From the NCBI GenBank assembly GCA_902793685.1, contig CADBEN010000016.1, positions 1 through 45,419 of the forward strand: a DNA stretch of 45,419 bases, given 5' to 3'. The DNA comes from an uncultured Lachnospiraceae bacterium (GTDB taxonomy: Bacteria; Bacillota; Clostridia; Lachnospirales; Lachnospiraceae). Below are positions 1,578 through 28,745 of this stretch, piece by piece. Position numbers and translations under genes: made by a program. Below the pieces are notes generated by a model that saw only the letters and a list, made by a program, of their open reading frames with translations, was not told where the DNA came from and did no database searches. The first letter of the stretch is position 1. The number at the start of each line of letters is the position of its first letter.

Positions 1578-2756
1578 ATGGATTTTGAAAATGATAAGGT
1601 AATCACACGTACGTCAGCTCCTGCGGAGAATCCGGGCGCCGCGCCCGGCAAAGATGCCGGGGATGCAGCTGCCCTGGAGCTCAGGAGGAACGCCGAGCGC
1701 CGCTGCCGCGCCATCGCGGTGCGGATCTATGATCTGGACACCAGGGTCTATGAGCAGTCCGGCTCCACCCTGGGCCGCACGCTGATCTCGGAAAAATCGA
1801 AAAGCATCAATCTCCTGACCAGAGAGCTCATCTTCCGCCCCCAGGGCGAAGCGATCGTGAGCTATATGGCCCTGATCGGCAACATGGCCCGCTCTCTGAA
1901 GGATAAAAAGGTCCGGCGGGCGATGATGTCGGAGTACAATGCGATCCGGCAGGAGATCCTTTCGCTGGAAGGCGCTGTTCCGGATTCCGATATCGGAAAT
2001 CCGGCGCGCATGCGGCTGAATCCCTTCATCATCCGGAAGAATTTCGGACATCAGCCGCGGAGAAAGTTCACGGATCAGGACCGGCTGGTCATCTGCATCG
2101 GCCGCAGCTACGGCTGCGGCGGGAACGACATCGGCTTCAAGCTGGCCGACATGCTCCACATCGACTACTATGACGCCACCGTCTTCCGGGACGTGATGGA
2201 CCGGGAGCTGGCAGAACGGGAAAGCGCGGCGGGAGGGAAATCCTTCCGGGACCAGCTGGACGAAGACCGGAATCTGAAGGGGTTCCGGCGCTGGCTGGTA
2301 AACTTCAACCGTTTCCACGGTCTCCCGCCGGAGGATGCCCTCTTCTTCAACCAGAGTGAGTACATTATCGAGACGGCAAAGAAAAAGGATTTCGTGATCC
2401 TGGGGCGCTGTGCGGATGTGATCCTGAGAAACGCGGGTATTCCCCACGTCAGCATTTTCATCACCGCTCCTTTCGAAGAACGAGTCCGGAGGACCATGGA
2501 GATGCAGCAGCTCTCCCAGCGGGACGCTGCCCGGCTGATCCGCCGACAGGACCGCCAGCATGCCCGGTTCTACAAGCGTTTCACCGGTCTCGAATGGGGC
2601 AGCGCCGTCCACTACGACCTCTGCATCAACAGCGCGAGCTACGGGATCGAGGAATGCGTGCGGCTGATCCACCGTGTCACCCACGCGAGAGTCCGGGATG
2701 ACCTGGGCCTTGAAAACGCCACAGCCCGCAGACCCGCCCCGCCTGCCGCTCCGTAA
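1578..2756 (+). CDS. Cytidylate kinase-like family protein
   Basis: The protein has 392 residues. Residues 1-165 are a charged, mostly helical N-terminal part that I do not recognise. From residue 169 there is a nucleoside-kinase fold of the cytidylate kinase-like family: GRSYGCGGNDIG at 175-186 stands where a P-loop would be, and LGRCADVIL follows near residue 275. The loop lacks the canonical GKS/T lysine, so CMP kinase activity is uncertain; such proteins are common beside transporters in Clostridia and have no firm role. TAAGGAGG sits ahead of the ATG at 1578. It follows the permease gene by 13 bases and may regulate or modify that transporter, which is inference. Confidence 0.75.
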   Translation: MDFENDKVITRTSAPAENPGAAPGKDAGDAAALELRRNAERRCRAIAVRIYDLDTRVYEQSGSTLGRTLISEKSKSINLLTRELIFRPQGEAIVSYMALIGNMARSLKDKKVRRAMMSEYNAIRQEILSLEGAVPDSDIGNPARMRLNPFIIRKNFGHQPRRKFTDQDRLVICIGRSYGCGGNDIGFKLADMLHIDYYDATVFRDVMDRELAERESAAGGKSFRDQLDEDRNLKGFRRWLVNFNRFHGLPPEDALFFNQSEYIIETAKKKDFVILGRCADVILRNAGIPHVSIFITAPFEERVRRTMEMQQLSQRDAARLIRRQDRQHARFYKRFTGLEWGSAVHYDLCINSASYGIEECVRLIHRVTHARVRDDLGLENATARRPAPPAAP

Positions 2757-2788
2757 AAAGGCTGCCCGAAATAAAAAAAGTACCGGAA

Positions 2789-2834
2789 AAAGAGGCTGCC
2801 GTATTCAGGAAAAACTGAATACGGCAGCCTCTTT
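2789..2834. terminator. Bidirectional terminator hairpin
   Basis: A perfect 20-bp stem (2789-2808 with 2815-2834) encloses a six-base loop, GAAAAA. The stem begins with AAA and ends with TTT, so it can act on both strands. It separates two convergent genes, the kinase-like gene ending at 2756 and the esterase ending at 2861. Confidence 0.85.
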
Positions 2835-2860
2835 CCATGTTTCAGCCGGCAAGACTGTGT

Positions 2861-3664
2861 TTACGAATTCCAGAGCCAGTCCATAAAGACCGGCACCTGC
2901 TTCTCCCAGTCCCGCTCGCAGTGCTCTCCCTCCACCTGGCAGAACAGCTTCGCGGCCGCGCCGCGGGCCGCGAGCTGGTCAGCCGCAGCCTGATTCCAGT
3001 GAAAGGTCCTGCTGGACCGGTCTTCTTTGGAAGGATCCTTGATCCCCCAGGCTTCACGGGTCCCCCAGGACAGAAACACTCTGGTATCGGGACTGATGTC
3101 GTCCTCTTCCAGGTCCCTCATGACCTCCGGGAAGCAGAAGCCGATAGAGCTGGAGACGCAGGCCGCCTTTGAAAACCAGCGGTTGCAGCGCGCCACGCCG
3201 TAGAGCGCCATCAGGCCGCCCATACTGGAGCCGCCGATGCCGGTGCATTCCCTGAAGGGAATGGTCCGATACTCCCGGTCGATCTTCGGCTTTACGTCTC
3301 CCAGGACCCAGAGCATCGTTGCCTCTCCCAGGCCCATGATCCGCTCCGGGGCATCCGGCCCCAGGAGCTTACGCAGCCCTTTGCTCTCCGCAATGTAGGG
3401 GAAATACTCGATGAGCCTTGAGTTCCCCTCGTGGCTGCATTCCATACCGACAATGATCATCTTCCGGTTCCAGCCCTCCAGGAACTCCTTAAACCCCCAG
3501 GACTTCCCATAGGTCGCGTCCTCATTGAAGAACAGGTTGTGCCCGTCAAAGAAATACATGACCGGATACCGCTCCTCAGACTTGTGGTAGTCATCCGGAA
3601 GATAGATGTGCAGCCGGCGGGAACTGCCCGCCGGCGGATAATATATGTCTCTCTTGATAATCAT
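2861..3664 (-). CDS. Alpha/beta hydrolase, putative esterase family
   Basis: This 267-residue cytoplasmic hydrolase belongs to the esterase D / Fes-like putative esterase family. YPVMYFFDGHN at 33-43 is the strand and oxyanion region. GGSSMGG at 144-150 contains the nucleophile (Ser147 in G-S-S-M-G). GEHCERDW near the C-terminus supplies the probable catalytic histidine. There is no signal peptide. It starts 16 bases after the ddh stop, with the weak ribosome site GGGGCAGGG, so it is probably the second gene of a ddh operon. The substrate is unknown. Confidence 0.75.
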   Translation of the reverse strand: MIIKRDIYYPPAGSSRRLHIYLPDDYHKSEERYPVMYFFDGHNLFFNEDATYGKSWGFKEFLEGWNRKMIIVGMECSHEGNSRLIEYFPYIAESKGLRKLLGPDAPERIMGLGEATMLWVLGDVKPKIDREYRTIPFRECTGIGGSSMGGLMALYGVARCNRWFSKAACVSSSIGFCFPEVMRDLEEDDISPDTRVFLSWGTREAWGIKDPSKEDRSSRTFHWNQAAADQLAARGAAAKLFCQVEGEHCERDWEKQVPVFMDWLWNS

Positions 3665-3680
3665 ACCCTGCCCCTGCTGG

Positions 3681-4667
3681 TCACAGCAGATGTGCGCGGA
3701 GCTCCGCTCCGTCCATAGCGCTCAGATATGCCGGTGCGACGTCGAACACGGTCTTGCAGCCGGTCTGGCCTTCCGCCGCCATGCGGCAGGCAGCTCTCGC
3801 GTATGCCACAAGGACGCATGCGGTGAACTCCGGGTTGGAATCCAGCTTCAGGCTGTACTCGATCACCTGCTTGTGCTCTTTCTCAAAGCCGGTGACGCCG
3901 CTGCGGATCACGAATCCGCCGTGGGGCAGGCCGCTGTGCTTTTCCTTCATCTCCTCCGCGGAAATGAAGTGAACTGTGGTGTCATAATCCGCGAAGTAGT
4001 TCGGCATGGTCTTGATCTCCTGCTCGATCTTCGCCTTGTCCGCACCCTCTGCCGCGACGACATAGCATTCTCTGGTGTGCATGTCGCGGGTCCCGAGTTC
4101 CGGATTCTCGCCGTTCCGGACCTTCTGCACCGCTTCCGGCACCGGGACGGTATACTGCCGCGCGTCGATGACACCCTCGATCCGGCGGATCGCGTCGGAA
4201 TGGCCCTGGCTCACGCCTCTGCCCCAGAAGGTGTAGTTCTTTCCTTCCGTCAGGACCACGCTGGCGATCATACGGTTCAGGGAGAACATGCCGGGATCCC
4301 AGCCGAGGGAGATCATCGCGACCTTCCCGCCCTTCTTTGCGGCGGCATCGACCGCGGCAAAGTGCTCCGGGATCTTTGCGTGGGTGTCAAAGCTGTTGAT
4401 CAGGGTAAACTTCTCCGCGAGGGCCGGCGTCTGGACCGGCAGATCCGTCGCACTGCCGCCGCAGAGGATCATGACGTCGATCTTGTCCGTCCACTGGTCG
4501 ACATCGGCCGCGCTGACCACCGGAACGTTCTCCGTGCGGATCTTCAGCGCCGCGGGATCTCTTCTCGTGAAGACTGCCTTCAGTTCCATATCCGGGTTCT
4601 GACGGATGGCGCTCTCGACGCCGCGTCCCAGGTTTCCGTAACCGTAAATACCGATGCGAATGCTCAT
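3681..4667 (-). CDS. ddh: meso-Diaminopimelate D-dehydrogenase
   Basis: The protein has 328 residues, the usual size. It catalyses the reversible NADPH-dependent amination of L-2-amino-6-oxopimelate to meso-diaminopimelate, a one-step branch of lysine and peptidoglycan precursor synthesis. An N-terminal Rossmann motif, GYGNLG, is at residues 9-14. The family signatures GWDPGMFSLNR and WGRGVSQGHSDAIRR follow near residues 123 and 152. I chose the ATG at 4667 because AAAGGA lies at proper spacing; an upstream ATG at 4778 would add 37 unrelated residues. The esterase follows 16 bases later. Confidence 0.92.
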   Translation of the reverse strand: MSIRIGIYGYGNLGRGVESAIRQNPDMELKAVFTRRDPAALKIRTENVPVVSAADVDQWTDKIDVMILCGGSATDLPVQTPALAEKFTLINSFDTHAKIPEHFAAVDAAAKKGGKVAMISLGWDPGMFSLNRMIASVVLTEGKNYTFWGRGVSQGHSDAIRRIEGVIDARQYTVPVPEAVQKVRNGENPELGTRDMHTRECYVVAAEGADKAKIEQEIKTMPNYFADYDTTVHFISAEEMKEKHSGLPHGGFVIRSGVTGFEKEHKQVIEYSLKLDSNPEFTACVLVAYARAACRMAAEGQTGCKTVFDVAPAYLSAMDGAELRAHLL

Positions 4668-26246: not shown

Positions 26247-27248
26247 ATGAACATCTATGAAATAGCCGAACTGGCGGGTGTCTCCATCGCGACGGTGTCG
26301 CGGGTCATGAACGACAGCCCGCTGGTCAGCGAAAAGACCAAAAAGAAGGTCCGGGACGTCATCGCGCAGAATGAATACACGCCCAATGTGTTCGCGCGGG
26401 GACTCGGCCTGAATTCCATGGAGACGGTGGGCCTGATCTGCCCCGATGTGGCGGACAACTACATGGCTGTCGCCGTGGCCCGGCTGGAGCGTTCCCTGCG
26501 GGAGTGCGGATACAACTGCTTTCTCCGCTGTACCGGCCGTGACCACGACGGCTGCCGAAAAGAACTGCGGGAGCTTCTCCAGAAGCGCATCGACGCGGTG
26601 GTCCTGATCGGTTCCTCCTACGCGGACGACGATCCCGACTCCGAAAAAGTCGAATATATCCGGCAGGCAGCGTCCCAGATCCCGGTCTTCATGCTGAACG
26701 GCTACGTCCGGGGCAGCAACATCTACTGTGCCCTCTGCAACGATTATGAGTCCTCCTACTCCGCAGTCTCGGAGATGATCGCCTCCGGCCGGAAAAAACC
26801 GCTTCTTCTTATGAACGCCCGCACCTACAGTGCAAACCAGAAACGGAAGGGCTGTGAAGAAGCACTGAAGGATGCCGGCCTTCCCGTGGAAGAATCCCGG
26901 ATCCTTTACATTTCAGGCGGAGTCGAGGCAGTCACGAATCATCTTCTCCGGGAGCAGCACCCGGACATCGACGCAGTCTTTGCCGCCAACGACATCCTTG
27001 CCATCGGCGCCCTGAAATACGCCGAAAAGCTGGGGCTGCGGGTCCCGGAGGATCTCTGCATCCTCGGCTACAACAATTCTCAGTTTGCCCTCTGCACAAA
27101 CCCTGAGCTCTCCAGCATCGACAGCCGGGTGGACCGGCTCTGCGACATCATCGTCGACACGCTGCAGCTCCGCATGAAGGACCAGCCGGTCAGCAGCCAG
27201 GTGTACGCGAAGGGCTCGCTGATCCGGCGCGGCACCACCGACTTCTGA
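26247..27248 (+). CDS. LacI family transcriptional regulator
   Basis: The protein has 333 residues. The N-terminal HTH reads NIYEIAELAGVSIATVSRVMN, followed by the hinge region and a periplasmic-binding-protein-like ligand domain (VGLICPDVADNYMA, VFAANDILAIGALKYAEKLG). It diverges from uxaA with LacI-type palindromes on both sides, so it most likely represses the uxaA-kduD operon and itself, released by a uronate intermediate. CcpA is an alternative for the cre-like site, but the protein lacks the usual CcpA context. AGAAAGGG precedes the ATG. Confidence 0.9.
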   Translation: MNIYEIAELAGVSIATVSRVMNDSPLVSEKTKKKVRDVIAQNEYTPNVFARGLGLNSMETVGLICPDVADNYMAVAVARLERSLRECGYNCFLRCTGRDHDGCRKELRELLQKRIDAVVLIGSSYADDDPDSEKVEYIRQAASQIPVFMLNGYVRGSNIYCALCNDYESSYSAVSEMIASGRKKPLLLMNARTYSANQKRKGCEEALKDAGLPVEESRILYISGGVEAVTNHLLREQHPDIDAVFAANDILAIGALKYAEKLGLRVPEDLCILGYNNSQFALCTNPELSSIDSRVDRLCDIIVDTLQLRMKDQPVSSQVYAKGSLIRRGTTDF

Positions 27249-27722
27249 CCCCCGCCGGGCGGAGACGCATATTACACGAAGAGGCCCTGCCCTCAAAACC
27301 CTTGTTCTGCCTTCGTGATCCATTCGGATATATCTGACATTTCCGCTCGGTCGAGTGGCCTTGCGGCATACTCTCGGTCGCGGAAATGTCAATATCCATG
27401 GATCACTCAGTCGAACTGCGATGGTTTTGAGAGGCAGGGCCTCTTGCTCGCTGTGTTCCCCGCCGGGCGGACCGAGAGCGGGAGCCCGGACCGTGATACA
27501 GGCACAAGAAAAATACACTCCAGGGTGAAGTTTACTTCAACCTGGAGTGTATTTCTTGTAAGCGGATTCTGTAAGTCGGGCGGGAGCGATGGCCGATGGC
27601 ACCGCGGCGGAACTTCGTACAAGCGCCATTTGCCTGCAGAGGCAGCACTTCCGGCTCCCGGCTTCATTCTGCCGGGCAGGGCCTCTTCATGTAATGTGCA
27701 TCCCCCTGCCGCCGGGCGGGGA
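27249..27722. repeat. Nested inverted-repeat element between convergent genes
   Basis: This 474-bp gap has no credible gene. Terminal inverted arms 27267-27291 and 27675-27699 match at 23 of 25 positions. A second arm pair, 27279-27300 with 27423-27445, pairs almost perfectly, enclosing a third imperfect stem, 27315-27346 with 27380-27406. The block AAGAGGCCCTGCC occurs three times (one direct, two inverted). CCCCGCCGGGCGG occurs at 27250-27262 and 27458-27470, with a close variant at 27709-27721. It may be a MITE-like non-autonomous element or a large structured RNA. No transposase or target duplication was recognised. Confidence 0.75.
27505..27558. repeat. Long hairpin inside the repeat element
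   Basis: Positions 27505-27524 pair with 27541-27558 over 18 bp with a two-base bulge. The loop itself contains TGAAGT/ACTTCA (27526-27531 with 27534-27539). No T-run follows on the plus strand, so it is not a standard terminator there. Confidence 0.7.
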
Positions 27723-28745
27723 TCAGCGGTTCATCTCGGACACCGGGCCGGTGCTGCGGTGCGCCTTGATGATGGACGCGATCTCGTCGTAGCTTGTGCT
27801 GAGCAGGTCGCCCGGCACCGTATCCTTGAAGCTGGAGATCGCATTGCCGAACTGCATGGCTTTCTCGGCATCCGCGTACTTCAGGAGACCGAACAGGGTG
27901 CCGGCGACGAAGGCGTCGCCCGAACCGATGCGGTCTATCACGTCGATGTTCATGTAGGGCTCTTCCGTGTGGAAGCAGTCCTCGTTCGCGTCATAGACGA
28001 TGGAAGTGAAGTCGTGGACGCGGGGGCTGTGAACCGTGCGGCGGGTGCTGGCAACGATCTTCACGCCGAACTCCTCGGCGTAGGAGCGCATGATCTCCTC
28101 CATGCTGCCGGTCTTTTGGAACATGCGGCGGCTGGTCTCCTCAGAGACGAAAAGCACGTCCACCAGCGGCAGGATCTTCTTGATGGTCTCCCGGGCCTCG
28201 TCCTCGCCCCAGAGATTCGCACGGTAGTTCACGTCGAAGGAGATCTTCGTGCCGCTGTCGCGGAAACGACGCATGGCCGCAATGGTCACCTCGCGGAGGT
28301 GGGGATTCAGCGCCAGGGTGATGCCGGTGGTGTGGAACATTCTCGCGGCGGTGAAGATCGACTCCGGGATCTCCTCGAACTGAAGGCTGGTCACGGAGCT
28401 GTTCTGACGGTCATAGACAACGGAGGGCTTTCTCGGGTACGCGCCGCCTTCATAATAATAGATGCCGAGGCGGGAATCCGGGTCGTCGTCGAAAAGCAGG
28501 AAGTCGTCGGAAACGTCCATGAAGCGGATCCGGTTCCGCAGGAATGCGCTGACGGAGGATCTGGGAATCTTGGTGAGGACCGCGCTGCGGAGTCCCATCT
28601 GGGCGACACCTGCCGCCACGTTCAGCTCCGCTCCGCCGGCATGCTTCTCAAATACACTGCTGTCGGTGATCCGCGCGTGGCGCGGCGGGGAAAGGCGCAG
28701 CATGACCTCGCCCATGGTGATCAGGTCAAATTCTCTCTTTTCCAT
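27723..28745 (-). CDS. kdgK: 2-keto-3-deoxygluconate kinase, PfkB family
   Basis: This 340-residue kinase phosphorylates 2-keto-3-deoxygluconate to KDPG. It opens with ITMGEVMLRLSPP and GGAELNVAAGVAQMG (sugar-binding). ISFDVNYRANLW and the catalytic DRIGSGDAFVAG are PfkB/KdgK signatures. It follows the IclR gene by 53 bases on the same strand and is probably its operon partner. A second, diverged KdgK-like gene lies at 29772, so one of the pair may act on another keto-sugar acid. Confidence 0.85.
   Translation of the reverse strand: MEKREFDLITMGEVMLRLSPPRHARITDSSVFEKHAGGAELNVAAGVAQMGLRSAVLTKIPRSSVSAFLRNRIRFMDVSDDFLLFDDDPDSRLGIYYYEGGAYPRKPSVVYDRQNSSVTSLQFEEIPESIFTAARMFHTTGITLALNPHLREVTIAAMRRFRDSGTKISFDVNYRANLWGEDEARETIKKILPLVDVLFVSEETSRRMFQKTGSMEEIMRSYAEEFGVKIVASTRRTVHSPRVHDFTSIVYDANEDCFHTEEPYMNIDVIDRIGSGDAFVAGTLFGLLKYADAEKAMQFGNAISSFKDTVPGDLLSTSYDEIASIIKAHRSTGPVSEMNR

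What the first reader, a model, noticed from the sequence alone, without database searches (positions are those of the whole stretch)
27249..27725. Nested 470-bp inverted-repeat element between two stop codons
The whole gap between the LacI gene and kdgK is filled by arms in three nested pairs, with a 13-base core present three times and a GC block present three times. The outer arms match at 23 of 25 bases. Such density is not explained by terminators. It could be a MITE-like non-autonomous element, two fused copies of an intergenic repeat, or a large structured RNA.
Basis: seen in the sequence. Interest (0 to 1): 0.7.

Follow-up and report, generated by a model that had tools for sequence, protein, structure and literature searches.

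The report
Dispersed giant DNA hairpin repeats
The gap between two sugar-metabolism genes is packed with two kinds of hairpin-shaped DNA repeat that recur elsewhere in this bacterial genome, and the way their arms stay matched suggests they are copied or read as DNA rather than as RNA.

Summary
In detail: 27249-27725 is one dense nested palindrome (z -10 and -12). It holds two dispersed elements. Element A (core 27294-27429) has 12 copies at 10 loci of this genome; element B (about 27471-27645, left half truncated) has 3. A was found in 0 of 6 congeners, 0 of 199 other family genomes, and no plasmid, phage or GTDB/viral contig searched. In ten A copies 98% of stem cells pair (shuffled 85%); 80 cells changed on both sides, one by G-U alone, 11 are unpaired. 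G-U is no commoner than A-C, pointing to pairing kept at DNA level (single-strand hairpin or template switching) more than to RNA selection. The closest pair (92% core identity) has unrelated outer arms, yet each copy's own flanks are complementary (outside the element 11 of 12). So A lies at the centre of a site-specific palindrome that it entered or generated; at C24 this runs through both stop codons and a gene tail is missing. Mobility and mechanism are inferred. New variant of small palindromic mobile repeats.

The parts
27250..27292 (+). left site-specific arm; begins at the second base after the lacI stop codon
   Evidence: pairs with both right arms
27294..27429 (+). core of element A, 136 nt, a long hairpin with fixed unpaired T/C positions; 12 copies in the genome
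27282..27441 (+). probable full extent of element A (core plus about 12 bp of diverged terminal stem on each side); boundary approximate
   Evidence: homology of flanks between copies is weak and mostly within 10 nt of the core
27430..27470 (+). near right arm (starts AGAGGCAGGGCCTCTT, ends CCGCCGGGCGG)
27471..27503 (+). truncated left half of element B
   Evidence: by eye against C13:9061-9266 and C13:20771-20932
27504..27559 (.). apical hairpin of B with A- and T-rich ends; possible bidirectional terminator (inferred; the consensus scan did not flag it)
   Evidence: not found
27560..27645 (+). right half of element B; 83 nt are 92% and 89% identical to two other copies
27674..27722 (+). far right arm, best partner of the left arm; ends at the kdgK stop codon

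Best explanation
The gap is a composite of dispersed, non-coding palindromic repeats found so far only in this species: element A (about 160 bp) with a truncated element B beside it, inside a palindrome whose outer arms are peculiar to this site. A is most likely a non-autonomous mobile hairpin. SHOWN: many copies, pairing kept by Watson-Crick changes on both sides, fixed unpaired pyrimidines, and flanks that are unrelated between close copies but self-complementary at each site. INFERRED: it moves or moved as a folded single-stranded DNA hairpin, recognised by its unpaired T/C bases, into (or while creating) palindromes in intergenic DNA. INFERRED: its arms are kept complementary by template-switch copying of one arm from the other in replication rather than by selection on an RNA.
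For: 12 copies at E<=0.001 in the own genome, 0 in 199 other family genomes and 0 of 6 congeners. The orthologous secDF-tgt gap that holds copy C11 here (303 nt) is short and lacks A in 6 of 6 congeners (23-187 nt). Paired cells 98.0% vs 85.0% shuffled; 29 of 54 pairs with double change; 80 double-change cells vs 1 one-sided. Over 55 pairwise comparisons: 657 Watson-Crick double changes, 10 via G-U, 141 breaking (not independent). G-U no commoner than A-C in variable core pairs (1 vs 3, after setting aside one pair that is G-U in 9 of 11 copies) and in arms (5 vs 7); tRNA stems of the same genome have 11 G-U and 0 A-C of 132 (6 tRNAs). Unpaired columns more conserved (0.88) than paired (0.76); 17 of 18 invariant unpaired columns are T or C. 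The closest pair, window and C25 (92% core identity), has flanks at chance similarity. Outer flanks of 11 of 12 copies pair better than the best of 50 cross-copy controls.
Against: No strain-level empty site is available, so insertion itself is unseen; congeners are too distant to align the gaps base by base. No target-site duplication. Of transposases only the Y1 family was sought: six matches, none within 20 kb of an A copy on its contig, and the A model finds nothing in those six loci. The C1 copy's outer flanks (5.0) lie within the null, and the window (near arm) and C4c (7.0 each) only just exceed its maximum of 6.0. 'Further standard pair types' does not exceed shuffles (37 vs 39.7). The core has 11 unpaired cells of 540, the arms 34 other mismatches of 432, and one search has 141 breaking differences. 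Family D shows some G-U changes (15 double, 4 via G-U) and B too few to judge (3 vs 2). By eye no copy shows the spacer inversion that template switching can also produce.
Confidence: 0.6

Rival explanations
1. A family of structured RNAs (3' UTR element or small RNA) kept by selection on RNA folding.
For: Very strong covariation and conserved unpaired positions; by my reading, 11 of 12 copies lie 3' of a gene.
Against: Almost no G-U steps (1 one-sided cell vs 80 double), unlike tRNAs of the same genome; 2 of 12 copies antisense to both neighbours (C11, C13a); no Rfam family at gathering score; absent from the 6 congeners.
Confidence: 0.15
2. The element enters the loop of hairpins that already existed (terminators or other palindromes), as the SMR-A repeats of Haloquadratum do, and makes no arms itself.
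For: Outer arms differ between close copies but pair within a copy; some end in T-runs (C4a T8, C1 T6); in 9 of 12 copies the left strand has 1-2 extra bases 7-12 nt outside the core, near the element boundary. SMR-A repeats insert in palindromes without target duplication (PMC3119063, passages read). Congener secDF-tgt gaps hold ordinary hairpins.
Against: At C6 and C11 a separate terminator is present and half of it recurs on the other side of A (by eye); at C24 the arms run 48-52 nt beyond the element, through both stop codons, and the gene tail present in 6 of 6 congeners is missing; uninterrupted palindromes that long are unstable in bacteria (recalled).
Confidence: 0.35
3. Insertion or later replication made the arms: one flank was copied in inverted orientation to the other side (palindrome extension by template switching), at times overwriting gene ends.
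For: C24: both convergent genes end in GAGTAAACGCCGCCCC; the + gene stops there while 6 of 6 congeners continue (6 residues in G006, about 50 or more in the others); in G004 and G005 the two genes also converge, with a short terminator-like hairpin by eye and no A. Half-terminator copies at C6 and C11. Template switching makes reverse-complement copies and can extend stems (PMC8794818, abstract and passages).
Against: The gene tail differs greatly among congeners, so its loss may be unrelated. Intergenic DNA cannot be aligned to congeners. In the window both gene ends look intact (LacI ...TTDF in G001, KdgK ...SEMNR in G002).
Confidence: 0.4
4. Only ordinary intrinsic terminators of two convergent genes.
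For: Convergent context; apical hairpin 27504-27559 has A- and T-rich ends.
Against: Dispersed copies with conserved internal loops, also between co-directional genes and in a divergent gap; the consensus scan finds no terminator in 27150-27800, though it could miss one whose T-run lies inside the stem.
Confidence: 0.03

Closest known systems
SMR-A small mobile repeats and PATEs of Haloquadratum walsbyi (PMC3119063, passages read)
   Same: SMR-A: about 110 bp, inverted ends, no transposase, no target duplication, sit inside palindromes; several families per genome, nested in other elements
   Different: Here a bacterium, about 160 bp, the whole element is one hairpin with Watson-Crick changes on both sides; no link to an IS605-type palindrome was shown
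Stem-loop repeat families of bacterial genomes such as ERIC and bcr1 (PMC2267715, passages read; ERIC details recalled)
   Same: Imperfect palindromes, intergenic, limited copy number, common secondary structure
   Different: Sequence relation was not tested; here the outer arms are site-specific and stem changes are almost always on both sides
REP elements (PMC3733652, search listing only)
   Same: Extragenic palindromes
   Different: REPs are 20-40 bp with GTAG or CGTC tags; A is far larger and its copies do not share such an end
Hairpins made or kept by template switching (PMC8794818, abstract and passages)
   Same: Multi-base compensatory changes and stem extension in one event
   Different: There in RNA genes; here in a dispersed non-coding repeat, with arms reaching gene ends

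Membership tests
MITE | multiple dispersed copies without a coding gene | tested here: met
   12 copies of A; about 160 bp
MITE | terminal inverted repeats | tested here: met
   CAAAACC/GGTTTTG in most copies and the 10-bp terminal stem
MITE | target-site duplication | tested here: not met
   no boundary within 40 nt of the core gives more direct repeats than re-paired flanks
MITE | ends shared with a transposon of the genome | tested here: inconclusive
   only Y1 transposases sought; the A model finds nothing in those six loci; other families not searched
SMR-A small mobile repeats | about 110 bp, inverted ends, no target duplication, inserted in palindromes | tested here: inconclusive
   at the centre of a palindrome in 11 of 12 copies, no TSD; a palindrome older than the element not shown; about 160 bp
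ERIC / bcr1 | sequence homology to the family | not tested
   no family sequence was compared
REP | 20-40 bp palindrome with GTAG/CGTC tag | tested here: not met
   136-nt core; alignment of 12 copies shows no such shared end
described Rfam RNA | score above the family's gathering threshold | tested here: not met
   0 matches to 4227 families in the window; the five lax matches in the gap are far below cut-off
conserved structured RNA | covariation including G-U-tolerant changes | tested here: inconclusive
   covariation strong, G-U changes nearly absent
intrinsic terminator | GC stem followed by T-run | tested here: inconclusive
   0 found in 27150-27800, but the T-run of 27504-27559 would lie inside the stem

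The most novel reading that the evidence does not exclude
A mobile DNA hairpin that builds its own palindrome: each insertion, or the replication events that follow, copies flanking chromosome in inverted orientation to the other side, so the element ends up at the apex of a site-specific foldback, and the same copying keeps its stems Watson-Crick paired without selection on RNA.
Probability: 0.3. Interest if true: 0.75.

Novelty: new variant of a known kind. Interest (0 to 1): 0.5.

Why it matters
Covariation is usually taken as proof of a functional RNA. Here a dispersed repeat shows extreme covariation with almost no G-U steps, and stems that run on into site-specific flanks, at one locus through gene ends. 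That makes the proposal that template switching creates and maintains hairpins directly testable in a bacterium, warns against calling such repeats RNAs, and offers many natural replicates (12 A copies plus families B and D) in one genome.

Tried and rejected
Rfam at gathering score gave nothing; at lax E-value five matches (two to one microRNA family, far below its cut-off), taken as chance hairpin matches. Relatives: blastn in 60 relatives, 0 hits (at most 10 candidates scored per genome); covariance model in 199 other family genomes, 0 (stricter filters, 16 candidates scored per genome shown), and in 6 congeners, 0 (150 scored per genome). One exact DNA pattern in the 84,980-species contigs and in viral contigs, 0 each (the tool says own or very near records may be left out; the pattern would not hit all of the own copies either). 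Plasmids and phages, 0.

tgt locus as an empty site: one search printed the wrong side of the gene for the matches on the minus strand; redid it. The secDF-tgt order is kept in 6 of 6 congeners. Gaps are 303 nt here and 91 (G002), 23 (G001), 187 (G003) and 90 (G006) there; for G004 and G005 the script missed the GTG start, and by eye the gap is about 85 nt. None can be aligned with ours. SerS loci (80 kept of 573) served only to name the likely genus: best match 89% to 'Lachnospiraceae bacterium ACC2'; that this strain is Stomatobaculum longum is recalled, and the taxonomy tool did not know the old name.

Transposase partner: the Y1 family has six matches, four of them at contig ends. One search showed the flanks of one properly and misprinted those of the second; one search then searched all six loci with the A model: no match.

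Literature: seven searches; no listing showed this element. Passages were read of PMC8794818, PMC3119063 and PMC2267715; no paper was read whole. This does not prove that nothing is in print.

Dropped rows: the alignment A2, model R1 and the counts use 10 of the 12 copies (C1 and the divergent C24 were found later). (core) and 80 use 11 (C24 left out). The arm count holds 13 comparisons, the window's left arm twice. Searches use all 12; the null is 50 of 132 cross-copy pairs. Copies are related, so p-values and pair sums overstate independence. Identity is by gapped alignment (C4a-C6 92%, C4c-C1 91%); column by column in the structural alignment C4a-C6 is 86% and C4c-C1 is lower (below the ten listed), while window-C25 stays 92%.

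Full report
WHAT IS THERE. The 477 bases between the LacI-family gene (26247-27248, +) and the PfkB/KdgK-like gene (27723-28745, -) form one dense nested palindrome. Both strands fold far better than shuffled versions (z -10.2 and -12.3, 0 of 100 shuffles each). The left arm has two right partners: a near one (27430-27470) and a better far one (27674-27722).

TWO DISPERSED ELEMENTS. Searching the window's own genome (2.54 Mb, 63 contigs) with the gap splits it into two repeat families. Element A has its core at 27294-27429. A covariance model built from 10 copies finds 12 copies at E<=0.001, at 10 loci, plus one match at E 0.19 that I did not count. Element B (right half 27560-27645; its left half here is a remnant, judged by eye) has two further copies, both on contig C13. 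By my reading of the translations, five A loci lie between convergent genes, four between co-directional genes and one in a divergent gap with DnaA-box-like repeats beside a dnaA-like gene (only the LacI, PfkB, Tgt, SerS, zinc-ribbon and MacB/FtsX proteins were checked with Pfam, the zinc ribbon below its cut-off). A third family, D, occurs at C1:190444-190698 with partial matches on C5 and C9.

FOUND SO FAR ONLY IN THIS GENOME. A was not found in 60 relatives by blastn, in 199 other genomes of the family or in the six congeners by covariance model, in 84,980-species contigs or viral contigs by one exact pattern, or in plasmids and phages. Copy C11 lies between secDF and tgt. That gene order is kept in 6 of 6 congeners, where the gap is 23-187 nt (about 85 nt by eye for two of them) against 303 nt here, and without A. 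Gain in this lineage is the simplest reading. The nearest named SerS is 89% identical, from Lachnospiraceae bacterium ACC2, so the genus is probably Stomatobaculum (recalled synonymy).

STRUCTURE AND COVARIATION. On 10 copies the 54-pair structure keeps 98.0% of 540 cells paired, against 85.0% in shuffles and about 40% when slid. 29 pairs have changes on both sides, 80 cells in all; one cell is a one-sided G-U change and 11 are unpaired. 0 of 500 shuffles reach these values or the covariation score, but the number of further pair types does not exceed shuffles (37 vs 39.7). Unpaired columns are more conserved (0.88) than paired ones (0.76), and 17 of the 18 invariant unpaired columns are T or C. 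Among 55 pairwise comparisons of 11 copies, stem differences are 657 Watson-Crick double changes, 10 via G-U and 141 breaking; the closest pair has 4 double, 0 G-U and 1 breaking. In pairs that vary, G-U cells are 10, of which 9 belong to one pair that is G-U in 9 of 11 copies, leaving 1 against 3 A-C; in the arms G-U is 5, A-C 7 and other mismatches 34 of 432. Six tRNAs of the same genome have 11 G-U and 0 A-C of 132 stem cells. So G-U is not favoured over A-C as RNA selection would favour it. Pairing seems to be kept at DNA level: either the working form is a single-stranded DNA hairpin, or one arm is copied onto the other. Template switching in replication does this and can extend stems (PMC8794818, abstract and passages). 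The copies are related, so these are tendencies, not probabilities. D behaves similarly but less purely (15 double, 4 via G-U), and B is too similar to judge (3 and 2).

SITE-SPECIFIC ARMS. The window and C25 copies share 92% of the core, yet their flanks are no more alike than chance; the same holds for C4a-C6 and C4c-C1 (92 and 91% by gapped alignment, less column by column). Over all 12 copies weak homology is found within 10 nt of the core (left 0.447 vs 0.301 expected, right 0.379 vs 0.277), a trace at 11-20 nt on the left only (0.318 vs 0.266, p 0.003), and none beyond. Yet each copy's own flanks are complementary over 17-61 nt (scores 9.5-29.5, shuffles at most 5.0). Counted only from outside the element, 11 of 12 copies exceed the highest of 50 cross-copy controls (6.0); the exception is C1 at 5.0, and the window's near arm and C4c are close to the limit at 7.0. 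In 9 of 12 copies the left strand carries 1-2 extra bases 7-12 nt outside the core. No target-site duplication is detectable.

HOW THE ARMS AROSE. Either A enters the centre of existing palindromes, or palindromes form around it by inverted copying. For the second: at C24 both convergent genes end with the same sequence through their stop codons; the zinc-ribbon gene stops there although all six congeners carry a tail (6 residues in G006, about 50 or more in the other five), and in G004 and G005 the same two genes also converge, with a short terminator-like hairpin by eye and no A. At C6 and C11 half of a self-standing terminator recurs on the other side of A (by eye). For the first: some arms end in T-runs like terminators (C4a, C1), and the archaeal SMR-A repeats enter palindromes without target duplication (PMC3119063, passages). 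In the window both gene ends match an orthologue (LacI in G001, KdgK in G002), and the palindrome begins at both stop codons. I cannot separate the two without strain-level empty sites.

MECHANISM, COMMITTED. Most likely A is a non-autonomous mobile hairpin handled as folded single-stranded DNA, its fixed unpaired pyrimidines serving as recognition marks, with arms homogenised by template switching. Y1 (IS200-type) transposases, which act on single-stranded hairpins (recalled), exist in this genome (six matches, some partial), but no link to A was found. Shown: dispersal, the kind of covariation, site-specific arms. Inferred: mobility, recognition, template switching. An RNA function is not excluded.

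LIMITS. The genome is a 63-contig draft; there are no transcript data; other transposase families were not sought; the sample in which D and other hairpins were seen covers about 445 kb of 2.54 Mb.

Noticed in passing
G000:C1:190444-190698 (in L076 and L207), C5:42211-42293 (L209), C9:18941-19120 (L212): A third dispersed giant hairpin family (D), with changes on both sides of stems and an internal terminator-like hairpin.
   Followed up: partly
L069:2221-2460 and L081:5641-5880: A shorter palindrome built on CTGCCGCATTAAG at two places of the own-genome sample; possible fourth repeat.
   Followed up: no
L052 (G000:C24), genes 2187-2951 (+) and 3186-4373 (-): A zinc-ribbon-like protein gene lacks the C-terminal tail seen in 6 of 6 congeners and ends in the same 16-nt sequence as the convergent permease gene.
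   Followed up: yes
L069:9601-10031 (G000:C1): A strongly folded region with a 105-nt direct repeat at 96% identity, partly shared with L067; nature unknown.
   Followed up: no
L102 (G005:C1:1500001-1520000): A CRISPR-like array with repeats like CCCCGCGTGTGCGGGGAAAAC in a congener.
   Followed up: no
G000:C38:4608-4964, C44:14712-14999 and ends of contigs C2, C8, C11, C49: Y1 (IS200-type) transposase genes, four of six cut at contig ends, so probably multi-copy.
   Followed up: partly
L036 (G000:C13:38022-38434): Two A copies in opposite orientation with a third A-like right half between them (CGCTCAGTCGATCTGCGATG, seen by eye; not reported by the model), suggesting nested or fused insertions.
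   Followed up: no
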